Of a stretch of 64,000 nucleotides of DNA, positions 1,083 through 45,328 are shown piece by piece. Both the position numbers and the translations under genes were made by a program. Source of the stretch: Clostridiales bacterium (GTDB lineage: Bacteria; Bacillota; Clostridia; Lachnospirales; WQUN01); assembly GCA_031271295.1 (NCBI GenBank), contig JAISVZ010000035.1:1-64000 (forward strand). The letters run 5' to 3'. Within the stretch, counting starts at the first letter, position 1. Each line of letters starts with the position of its first letter. The notes under the pieces are model-generated. The model did no database searches, was not told the DNA's origin, and was given only the letters and a program-made list of their open reading frames with translations.

Positions 1083-2276
1083 ATGGCGAAAGCTAAGTTT
1101 GAAAGAACAAAACCCCATATCAACATCGGAACCATTGGTCACGTTGACCACGGCAAAACAACATTGACGGCAGCCATCACAAAAACTCTTTTTGAAAGAT
1201 ATAAGCTCGGAGAGTTCGTCGCGTTCGATAAAATCGACAAAGCTCCGGAGGAAAGAGAAAGAGGCATTACAATTTCCACCTCGCACGTTGAGTACGAAAC
1301 CCCCAACCGCCACTATGCACACGTTGACTGCCCCGGTCACGCCGACTATGTTAAAAACATGATCACCGGCGCGGCTCAGATGGACGGCGCAATTTTGGTT
1401 GTTGCCGCAACCGACGGCCCTATGGCTCAAACAAGAGAGCACATCCTTTTGGCTCGCCAGGTTGGCGTTCCCAAAATCGTTGTATTTATGAATAAATGCG
1501 ACGCCGTAGACGACGAGGAACTTCTGGATTTAGTAGAAATGGAAATTCGCGACTTATTAAATGAGTACGAATTCCCCGGCGACGACACGCCGATTATCCG
1601 CGGCTCCGCGTTAATCGCTCTTAACGATTCTTCAAGCCCCTGGGCGGACAAAATCGTTGAGCTTTTCGAGCAGGTGGACACTTACATTCCCACACCTGAG
1701 CGCGAAACCGAAAAACCTTTCCTTATGCCTGTTGAGGACGTATTCTCAATTACCGGGCGCGGCACGGTTGCAACCGGCAGAGTTGAGCGCGGCACTCTTA
1801 AAATTCAGGAGGAAGTTGAAATTGTTGGCTTAACCGACGAATCCCGCAAGGTTGTTGTTACCGGTATTGAAATGTTCCGTAAATTGCTCGACCGCGCCGA
1901 AGCGGGCGACAACATCGGAGCGCTTCTTCGCGGCGTTCAAAGAACGGATATCGAACGCGGCCAAGTTTTGGCAAAACCGGGTTCCATAACCCCTCATACG
2001 GATTTTAACGCTCAGGTTTACGTTCTTTCACAGGAAGAGGGCGGCCGTCACAAACCGTTCTTTAACAACTACAGGCCGCAGTTCTATTTCAGAACAACCG
2101 ACGTTACAGGCGTTATCACATTGCCGGAAGGCGTTGAAATGTGTATGCCGGGCGATAACATCGAAATGAAAATAGACCTTATCACTCCTATCGCTATGGA
2201 TGAGGGCGTTCGCTTCTCTATCCGCGAAGGCGGCAGGACTGTTGGCGCGGGCTCTGTTGTTAAAATTAATAAGTAA
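1083..2276 (+). CDS. tuf: Elongation factor Tu
   Basis: This is a full-length 397-residue EF-Tu, the GTPase that brings aminoacyl-tRNA to the ribosomal A site. The P-loop GHVDHGKT is at residues 19-26, followed by the DCPGH switch II motif and the guanine-specificity motif NKCD near residue 136. Domain III ends with the conserved [10 protein letters not shown] stretch. The ATG at 1083 is preceded by AAGGAGG at 1067-1073 with a 9-nt spacer, so the start is secure. It sits 89 nt after fusA and has its own promoter. A palindromic element begins at the base after the stop codon and may act as a 3' end structure. Confidence 0.99.
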
Positions 2277-2377
2277 TACTAATTCCAATTTAAAAAGTTG
2301 AAGCCAAGCCCCCAAAATCGCCGTGGTTTTCGGCGTTTTTTGGGCACCGATTTCAAACTTTTTAAACAGAATTAGTA
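2277..2377. repeat. Palindromic MITE-like element, copy 1 (101 bp)
   Basis: The ends are inverted repeats: TACTAATTCCAATTTAAAAA on the left matches the complement of the right end (TTTTTAAACAGAATTAGTA) with few differences. The interior is also self-complementary, with CCCAAAATCGCCG facing CGGCGTTTTTTGGG around a short loop, so the whole unit can fold into one long hairpin. A second 101-bp copy lies at 5036-5136, a shorter 77-bp relative at 5698-5774 and a right-end fragment at 45224-45257. No coding capacity is visible. It starts at the base after the tuf stop codon and could contribute to termination. I infer a non-autonomous element; no matching transposase is in the window. Confidence 0.75.
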
Positions 2378-2400: not shown

Positions 2401-2431
2401 AGGCTGTTGCAGTACGCAGCAGCCTTTTTAT
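2401..2431 (+). terminator. Terminator after tuf
   Basis: GGCTGTTGC and GCAGCAGCC form a 9-bp stem with one G-T pair around a short loop, followed by TTTTTATA. It lies between the palindromic element and the next gene and is the likely intrinsic terminator of the fusA-tuf transcript. Confidence 0.7.
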
Positions 2432-3315: not shown

Positions 3316-3588
3316 AAAAAATCCGTGCGCGATACCCTCGACATTTCCCCCCGGACGTTACCGCCGCCGTTAACTCAAACCAAGCGCCCTCGCGGCACAT
3401 AAGCACTCTTGCTTAGCGCTGCTTCCTTCCGAACCTGACGCGGTTCACAAGCGCCTATTGCGCAAGACTCGGCCTTCAACGCCACGTATCGGCGGGCAGG
3501 CTCTATTGAGAAATGCCTGAGGCAAAGCATCACCCCCGCTGTAGCGGATTGCGGGTACAGGGAACCGCTGACTCCCCGGCTAGCACGG
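3316..3588 (-). ncRNA. ffs: Signal recognition particle RNA, large bacterial type (scRNA/6S-like)
   Basis: Read on the minus strand, the RNA starts near TTCCGTGCTAGCCGGGG and contains the universally conserved SRP domain IV hairpin (CAGGTTCGGAAGGAAGCAGC, complement of about 3418-3437). It also contains the Alu-domain block GCCGGGGAGTCAGCGGTTCC. The terminal TCCGTGC pairs with GCACGGA at the 3' end, followed by TTTTTT. At about 270 nt with an Alu domain it is the long form found in Bacillus and Clostridium, not the 4.5S form of E. coli. It forms the SRP with Ffh and targets nascent membrane proteins to FtsY and Sec. The exact ends after processing are not determined. Confidence 0.93.
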
Positions 3589-4754: not shown

Positions 4755-4817
4755 AAAATCCGTGCGCGATACCCTCGACATTTCCCCCCGGACGTTACCG
4801 CCGCCGTTAGCTCAAAC
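4755..4817. repeat. Duplicated 63-bp 3' end of ffs
   Basis: These 63 bases match 3318-3380, the 3' end of the SRP RNA gene, in the same orientation at 62 of 63 positions (one A to G change). The rest of ffs is not repeated upstream of this copy, so it is an orphan fragment. The two copies bracket the body of ffs, its promoter and the CPBP gene. Confidence 0.9.
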
Positions 4818-5035
4818 TCTTCTTAAAATCATCTGACCACTCATTAGGATTTGGATAATAAGCGGTTATCAGCCACAACTCATTTGAACCGACTCCACAA
4901 ACAATATGCAGCAGTTGACTATCTTCCCCCTGTCCCAACACCAAACAGCTTGGGTAAGGATAGTCATCCTGATATTGTTCTATTATTTCCCCATTTAGTA
5001 AAGCGCATATAACGCTAAAATGAGCCGTTGACTGA
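4807..5035 (-). pseudogene. DUF4258 family protein, 5'-truncated by a palindromic element
   Basis: Minus-strand translation from 5040 to the TAA at 4807-4809 gives a continuous C-terminal DUF4258 domain. Visible parts are NGEIIEQYQDDYPYPSCLVL, then LLHIVCGVGSNELWLITAYY and PNPNEWSDDFKK, matching my recollection of the family pattern (EY..D.PYPSCLVLG, LHVVCG, ITAYYPDP..W). DUF4258 proteins are small and RelE/HigB-like and are often found beside an antitoxin-like partner. The start and N-terminal part are missing because the palindromic element at 5036-5136 joins the frame directly. The last codons (KSLS, stop) are read from the duplicated ffs fragment, so the 3' end is rearranged too. Almost certainly non-functional. 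Confidence 0.7.
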
Positions 5036-5136
5036 TACCAATTCCAATTTAAAAAGTTGAAGCCAAGCCCTCAAAATCGCCGTGATTTTCGGCGTTTTGG
5101 GGGCGCCGGTTTCAAACTTTTTAACCAGAATTAGTA
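5036..5136. repeat. Palindromic MITE-like element, copy 2 (101 bp)
   Basis: Same length, orientation and layout as the copy at 2277-2377, differing at roughly one base in ten. The left end is TACCAATTCCAATTT and the right end TTTTTAACCAGAATTAGTA. It adjoins the truncated DUF4258 frame on its left side, so it appears to have inserted in or replaced the start of that gene. Confidence 0.75.
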
Positions 5137-5149
5137 TGACTTTAGAGAA

Positions 5150-5553: not shown

Positions 5554-5583
5554 TTGACAAAAATATCCGCAGTATGATAGAAT
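5554..5583 (+). promoter_or_regulatory. rpoBC promoter
   Basis: A consensus -35 TTGACA (5554-5559) and a -10 TAGAAT (5578-5583) are separated by 18 bp. The predicted start near 5590 leaves a leader of about 355 nt before rpoB. No rplJL genes precede rpoB here, so the operon needs its own promoter. Confidence 0.75.
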
Positions 5584-5589
5584 ACTTCA

Positions 5590-5946
5590 ATGCGCAAACT
5601 GCGCTTTTTAACGGAATCTAAATTATTATAACACGGCGTTTTCCAAATTACAATAATAAATTTTAATTTTCGCCAAATATGCTAAATGCATACCTAATAC
5701 TAATTCCAATTTTGAATAAGGAAAGAATCAATCCCCAAAAACTGCCGGGTTCGGCTTTTTAAACGGAATTAGTATAATGCATTTATTTTTATTCTTTTTT
5801 TATAATTTATTCGGGAATTATTCTTTAAAATTTCTATAACGGTTTAAAATTAAATTCTGATTTTTTCATTTCTTTATGAGGTGGTGTTTTGCGGGTTTTC
5901 GCAAACCCTCCATCCAGGCAATTTTCAATTTTTAAGGAGCGATTAT
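5590..5946 (+). other. Long rpoB leader
   Basis: About 355 nt lie between the predicted transcription start and the rpoB ATG, with no credible ORF. It contains the 77-bp palindromic element at 5698-5774, which would form a hairpin in the transcript. A GGTGG at 5880-5884 is not followed by a convincing gene. The leader may carry regulation, but no known riboswitch or L10-type leader is recognisable to me. Confidence 0.5.
5698..5774. repeat. Palindromic MITE-like element, copy 3 (77 bp, shorter form)
   Basis: It begins TACTAATTCCAATTTTGA and ends TTTTTAAACGGAATTAGTA, the same ends as the 101-bp copies. The interior is shorter and different, with CCCCAAAAACTGCCG facing CGGCTTTTT. It lies inside the rpoB leader downstream of the promoter. 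Confidence 0.65.
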
Positions 5947-45160: not shown

Positions 45161-45180
45161 AAGACAACGGCTAACTATTT

Positions 45181-45210
45181 GGAATGATGACAGAAAAATG
45201 TCATCATTCC
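45181..45210. repeat. Perfect 12-bp hairpin
   Basis: GGAATGATGACA and TGTCATCATTCC pair exactly around a 6-nt GAAAAA loop. No T run follows on the plus strand (GGAAAAAAG does), so it is not a standard terminator there; it may be a structured element end or a minus-strand terminator, where TTTTTTCC precedes it. Confidence 0.7.
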
Positions 45211-45223
45211 GGAAAAAAGAATA

Positions 45224-45257
45224 GCGCCGGTTTCAAACTTTTTAAACGGAATTAGTA
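45224..45257. repeat. Right-end fragment of the palindromic element (copy 4)
   Basis: GCGCCGGTTTCAAACTTTTT followed by AAACGGAATTAGTA matches the right arm of the 101-bp copies (closest to 5103-5136). The left arm is absent. Confidence 0.7.
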
Positions 45258-45328
45258 TTAGACCGTGTCGTGAAAATTAACATGTTATGCTGTTATAATA
45301 TTCACTGGCGCAATGTAATAAAAATACG

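What the first reader, a model, noticed from the sequence alone, without database searches (positions are those of the whole stretch)
2277..2377. Family of short palindromic elements placed at highly expressed genes
Two 101-bp copies (2277, 5036), a 77-bp variant (5698) and a right-end fragment (45224) share the ends TACTAATTCC...GGAATTAGTA and fold along their whole length. One abuts the tuf stop codon and one lies in the rpoB leader. This looks like a MITE or REP/RUP-like family that may supply terminators or RNA processing sites.
Basis: partly seen in the sequence, partly recalled or inferred. Interest (0 to 1): 0.6.

Follow-up and report, generated by a model that had tools for sequence, protein, structure and literature searches.

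The report
Hairpin MITEs inserting at TNA sites
These short hairpin-forming repeats are non-autonomous jumping elements (MITEs): about 57 copies lie in this bacterium, they duplicate a three-base TNA target that is often a gene's own stop codon, and elements with the same ends but unrelated middles occur in other families of its class, although the enzyme that moves them was not found.

Summary
The 101-bp element at 2277-2377 has about 57 copies in the assembled 3.7-Mb genome; whole-element search found it in none of 145 relatives. It is a MITE. Of 50 copies with both ends, 43 are flanked by an identical 3-bp repeat, always TNA, in a C|TNA|G context. That argues against the TA duplication of RUP/IS630 and against REPs, and points to an IS5/PHIS-type DDE transposase, which is inferred only: no autonomous copy was found. 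Elements with the same first 10-17 bp and the same TNA duplication, but unrelated interiors, occur in at least two further families of the class, probably three, so one end-recognition system has captured many fillers. 'Placed at highly expressed genes' is not supported: neighbours are ordinary genes. Instead, 14-15 copies duplicate exactly a gene's stop codon (including tuf TAA), against 4-7% expected (P about 1e-6); one of three other lineages repeats this. Full-length copies carry an intrinsic-terminator-like core, but mutations break pairs freely and private substitutions are as frequent in the core as elsewhere: no sign of selection for RNA function. At tuf a stronger terminator-like hairpin lies 24 bp downstream. 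New family of a known kind, with an orphan transposase.

The parts
2277..2377 (+). MITE copy A, 101 bp, full length, directly after the tuf stop codon
   Evidence: about 57 copies genome-wide
2274..2276 (+). Left target-site duplication TAA = tuf stop codon
2378..2380 (+). Right target-site duplication TAA of copy A
2319..2341 (+). Terminator-like core of copy A: stem CGCCG/CGGCG followed by a T run
   Evidence: present in most full-length copies, absent from the short variants
2401..2425 (+). Separate, stronger terminator-like hairpin (10-bp stem, then TTTTTAT), presumably the native tuf terminator
5036..5136 (+). MITE copy B, 101 bp, flanked by TGA (5033-5035 and 5137-5139)
5698..5774 (+). 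Short MITE variant C, 77 bp, flanked by TAA (5695-5697 and 5775-5777), in the presumed rpoB leader
5554..5583 (+). Promoter-like site upstream of rpoB (TTGACA-18-TAGAAT), which would place copy C in the transcript leader (inferred)
45224..45257 (+). Right-end fragment D of a truncated copy, followed by TTA (45258-45260)

Best explanation
A family of MITEs, non-autonomous cut-and-paste DNA transposons. Shown: about 57 dispersed copies with terminal inverted repeats TACTAATTCC..., insertion at TNA (preferred C|TNA|G) with 3-bp duplication, interiors forming one long hairpin, size variants, and decay after insertion without detectable structural constraint. Shown: elements with the same ends and the same duplication but unrelated interiors in other families of the class. 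Inferred: a DDE transposase of the IS5/PHIS type recognises only about 10-17 bp at each end and moves anything between them, acting in trans; its gene is lost, unassembled or not linked to these ends. Inferred: the stop-codon bias arises because TAA and TGA match the TNA target and an insertion there re-creates the stop codon and leaves the protein intact, so such insertions survive. Possible side effect, untested: the hairpin core terminates or slows transcription in both directions.
For: Copies. Target duplication: 43 of 50 identical 3-mers, all TNA; middle base agrees in 45 against 17 expected; C before in 31/50, G after in 25/50. The C|TNA|G target equals that of eukaryotic NuwaII transposons of the IS5-related PHIS superfamily (PMC4482050), and the bacterial IS5-family element IS1237 makes TTA/TAA duplications (PMC2516522). 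Same ends elsewhere: TNATACTAATTCC 31 times in G081 and 22 in G169 against 0-1 control hits; paired ends with identical TNA in G081, G169, G011 and in f74 genomes G439, G481, G620, G654; shared ends in G445. The smallest paired element is 34 bp, so ends may suffice. Neutral decay: 120 pair-breaking single changes against 42 pair-keeping and 13 double compensating; private substitutions 14/1144 in the core and 36/2568 outside, P 0.76. Stop codons: 14/50 against 4-7% expected, P about 1e-6; 14 of 21 copies within 30 nt of a stop lie exactly on it, expected 36%, P 0.004.
Against: No autonomous element with these ends was found in any sequence examined, so mobilisation by an IS5-type enzyme rests on the target signature alone; other DDE families also make 3-bp duplications. 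All-copy substitution rates are lower in the core (1.8% against about 3.9%, P 0.0009), which could hint at some constraint, though private changes do not show it.
Confidence: 0.85

Rival explanations
1. Exapted regulatory hairpins: the elements were mobile but are kept because they act as bidirectional transcription terminators or RNA processing sites at gene ends.
For: The CGCCG-loop-CGGCG-TTTT core matches an intrinsic terminator and is intact in 30 of 46 long copies; copies sit on stop codons more than expected, 12 of 15 in the element's + orientation.
Against: Pair-breaking changes outnumber pair-keeping ones; private substitutions are no rarer in the core; no excess between convergent genes (4 of 47 against about 15% expected); at tuf a stronger terminator-like hairpin lies 24 bp downstream; short variants lack the core.
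Confidence: 0.1
2. RUP-like or Correia-like elements moved by an IS630/Tc1-type transposase at TA.
For: Size, hairpin folding and intergenic placement resemble these; ends begin with TA; one IS630-type gene exists on contig C97.
Against: The duplicated unit is TNA with the middle base copied, not TA; the C97 gene is not flanked by these ends.
Confidence: 0.03
3. The stop-codon bias is active targeting by the transposition machinery (for example coupling to translation or transcription ends) rather than survival of harmless insertions. This is a variant of the MITE explanation, not an alternative to it.
For: Exact stop sites are preferred even over other TNA sites within 30 nt downstream (14 of 21 against 36%); repeated in G081.
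Against: Not seen in G169 or f74; survival of insertions that leave both the upstream protein and the downstream leader intact explains the same pattern.
Confidence: 0.15

Closest known systems
IS5-superfamily (PHIS) transposons: NuwaII group and bacterial IS1031/IS1237-type elements
   Same: 3-bp TNA duplication; NuwaII prefers C|TNA|G exactly as here (PMC4482050); IS1237 duplicates TTA/TAA (PMC2516522)
   Different: Those encode a transposase; here none was found with these ends, and the one IS5-type gene fragment seen in the genome (contig C24) lacks these ends within about 300 bp of its stop codon
RUP elements (Streptococcus pneumoniae) and Correia/NEMIS elements
   Same: About 100-bp hairpin-forming MITEs in many intergenic copies
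   Different: Those use TA targets, RUPs with an IS630-type enzyme (from general knowledge); here TNA, and no sequence relation known
QMITEs of Coxiella burnetii
   Same: Palindromic MITEs, one type mainly in 3' untranslated and intergenic regions (PMC5896051)
   Different: Different ends; QMITE2 repeats are 7-11 nt of variable sequence; duplication of the stop codon is not described in the passages read
REP/BIME elements with RAYT transposases
   Same: Palindromic, mostly intergenic, proposed roles in termination and mRNA stability
   Different: REPs are 20-40 bp, many GTAG-tagged, proposed to be moved by tyrosine transposases (PMC3733652), without target duplication (general knowledge)

Membership tests
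MITE (non-autonomous DNA transposon) | Short, non-coding, many dispersed copies | tested here: met
   57 unique copies, mostly 99-106 bp
MITE (non-autonomous DNA transposon) | Terminal inverted repeats | tested here: met
   TACTAATTCC / RGAATTAGTA at both ends
MITE (non-autonomous DNA transposon) | Target-site duplication of fixed length | tested here: met
   43 of 50 identical 3-mers, all TNA
MITE (non-autonomous DNA transposon) | Autonomous partner with the same ends (usual, but not strictly required) | tested here: inconclusive
   None found in the own genome or in fetched loci of other carriers, but the assemblies are drafts and repeats are easily lost from them
IS5/PHIS-mobilised element | TNA or similar 3-bp target duplication | tested here: met
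   PMC4482050, PMC2516522
IS5/PHIS-mobilised element | IS5-type transposase gene between the same ends | tested here: not met
   Only a fragment on contig C24, without these ends; membership is therefore not claimed, only a similar target
RUP / IS630-type MITE | TA dinucleotide duplication | tested here: not met
   Duplicated unit is TNA
REP / RAYT | GTAG-tagged hairpin without target duplication | tested here: not met
   Clear TNA duplications; no GTAG tag at the ends
Known structured RNA family | Rfam match | tested here: not met
   No Rfam family above threshold at any copy in the window

The most novel reading that the evidence does not exclude
A class-wide system of 'empty' elements sharing only their 10-17-bp ends and a TNA target, mobilised in trans by a still unidentified, possibly domesticated transposase that is not itself flanked by these ends, and that favours stop codons as landing sites.
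Probability: 0.2. Interest if true: 0.65.

Novelty: new member of a known kind. Interest (0 to 1): 0.42.

Why it matters
It defines a set of bacterial MITEs recognisable by ends and target alone across several families of one class, with no transposase attached, which makes 'what moves them' a concrete, searchable question. The coincidence of a TNA target with TAA/TGA gives a simple route by which a transposon can land on stop codons harmlessly and place a hairpin directly at the 3' end of genes such as tuf. It also corrects the view that these sequences mark highly expressed genes.

Tried and rejected
TA duplication and IS630 origin: rejected by the 3-bp duplications. Parent element in own genome: DDE_Tnp_1, DDE_Tnp_1_2 and DDE_3 genes found, none with these ends; other transposase families were not searched. 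A 1127-bp pair of ends in G081 (L167:6078-7204) proved to be two short elements either side of an ordinary membrane-protein gene. Single ends in own genome, G081, f74 and G445 look like truncated or imperfect MITEs, not insertion sequences. 86 viral contigs with the end motif had no paired second end, so they were taken as chance. One alphaproteobacterial exact match in the genome collection is probably chance and was not examined. No match in plasmids or phages. Selection on the RNA fold: not supported. Excess between convergent genes: not seen. The end string in the paper library: 19 papers hold it, and none of the ten listed is about a bacterial repeat, judged by title.

Full report
Observation. 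Copies A (2277-2377) and B (5036-5136) are 92% identical and fold along their whole length. The 77-bp variant C (5698-5774) folds more weakly (z -2.2). D (45224-45257) is only a right end.

Copies in the genome. The window's assembly (3.685 Mb, 220 contigs, 94% complete) holds at least 40 near-full copies in a capped search. Three searches together with a profile over fetched loci give 57 unique copies, plus a few single ends. Fifty have both ends; lengths are mostly 99-106 bp, with one of 116 and several of 63-79 bp. The long variants come from extra AAGCC units and the short ones lack the central hairpin. One pair of loci (contigs C144 and C176) shares its left flank and shows a later deletion inside one copy. 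No whole-element match was found in 145 relatives, in plasmids or in phages; an exact-pattern scan of the public genome collection gave one hit in an alphaproteobacterium, probably chance and not examined.

Transposition signature. In 43 of 50 copies the three bases on either side are identical, always TNA: TAA 20, TGA 11, TTA 10, TCA 2. The middle base agrees in 45 of 50 against 17 expected. No longer or shorter duplication fits. The base before is C in 31/50 and the base after G in 25/50. This C|TNA|G target is that of the NuwaII group of the IS5-related PHIS superfamily (PMC4482050), and the bacterial IS5-family element IS1237 duplicates TTA/TAA (PMC2516522). It differs from the TA of IS630-type elements. 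The assignment to an IS5-type enzyme is an inference from the target only.

Other genomes. TNATACTAATTCC is strongly enriched in two order-mates, G081 (31 hits, control 0) and G169 (22, control 1). Fetched loci show elements of 34-233 bp in G081 and 91-102 bp in G169 with paired ends and identical TNA; G011, in the window's own family, has a 136-bp element with TAA on both sides. A class-wide sample adds G439, G481, G620 and G654 (family f74; elements of about 157 and 245 bp, mostly with identical TNA) and G445 (family f85; 147 bp, flanks TCA and TAA). By eye the interiors are unrelated between these lineages; only TACTAATYCCAWT and a few further bases are shared. So the ends are the conserved unit. 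A 34-bp element with TAA on both sides suggests that little more than the ends is needed.

No autonomous partner. In the own genome, transposase searches gave four DDE_Tnp_1 matches, one of them the IS5-type fragment on contig C24, and one IS630-type gene; none carries these ends. A 1.1-kb candidate in G081 was two short elements around another gene. Single ends in the other carriers look like truncated elements. Repeated insertion sequences are often missing from draft assemblies, so absence here is weak evidence.

Where they insert. Most copies lie between genes. About 30 neighbouring proteins scanned include a radical SAM enzyme, a phosphomannose isomerase, a response regulator, histidine kinases, an ABC transporter ATPase, hisB, mnmG, DNA polymerase III alpha, SipL, an SLH protein and a Csp-type protease; tuf and rpoB are exceptions, so placement at highly expressed genes is not supported. 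What stands out is the stop codon: 14 of 50 scorable copies (15 counting one missed after emptying the locus) duplicate exactly the stop codon of the adjacent gene, against 6.7% of usable TNA sites in the emptied loci and 4.5% in the window (P about 1e-6). Within 30 nt downstream of a stop, 14 of 21 copies are exactly on it, expected 36% (P 0.004). G081 repeats the bias (5/12, P 0.004); G169 (1/12) and f74 (2/12) do not. The simplest reading is that TAA and TGA are TNA sites, and that insertion there restores the stop and harms little. Active targeting is not excluded.

Does the hairpin do anything? The consensus folds at -49.9 kcal/mol and contains a stem CGCCG/CGGCG followed by TTTTT, and on the other strand by ATTTT: a possible bidirectional terminator. 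But single changes that break pairs (120) outnumber those that keep them (42 single, 13 double). Substitutions private to one copy are about equally frequent in the core and in the arms (1.2% and 1.4%, P 0.76); the lower rate in the core for all substitutions (P 0.0009) therefore comes from differences shared between copies. There is no excess between convergent genes. At tuf, a 10-pair terminator-like hairpin stands at 2401-2425, 24 bp beyond the element, so the gene did not need the insertion for termination (inferred). At rpoB the 77-bp variant lies in the presumed leader downstream of a strong promoter-like site. Effects on expression remain untested.

Verdict. A new MITE family; the mechanism of insertion is well supported by sequence, the enzyme is unidentified. 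The wider set of unrelated fillers with common ends in several families of the class is the most interesting part.

Noticed in passing
window 3323-3372 and 4757-4807: About 50 bp from one end of the large SRP RNA gene (3323-3588, minus strand) is repeated at 4757-4807, apparently a partial duplicate of the SRP RNA gene.
   Followed up: no
L064:2040-2130: A 75-bp copy lies exactly between a response regulator stop (TGA) and the start of a histidine kinase; the element's last A plus the duplicated TGA forms ATG, which is the called start codon of the kinase.
   Followed up: partly
full-length copies, element positions 33-37 and 64-67: Two stem subfamilies (CCCC/GGGG and CTTG/CAAG) and hybrids with one arm of each, plus single copies with compensated arm changes; suggests recombination or template switching between palindromic copies.
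   Followed up: partly
L030 and L057, right flanks: Two copies share the same right flank (TAAATTGCTATCTGCG) but differ on the left, and L030 has unequal flanking triplets (TGA/TAA): possible recombination between copies.
   Followed up: no
L361-L369 (genomes G439, G620): The 245-bp elements with these ends carry nested hairpins (AGCTTCCCCTCGAGGGGAAGC, GATGAGGTGTAG) that look like repeats captured between the ends.
   Followed up: no
window 45180-45224: The truncated copy D is preceded by another short hairpin (GGAATGATGACA...TGTCATCATTCC).
   Followed up: no
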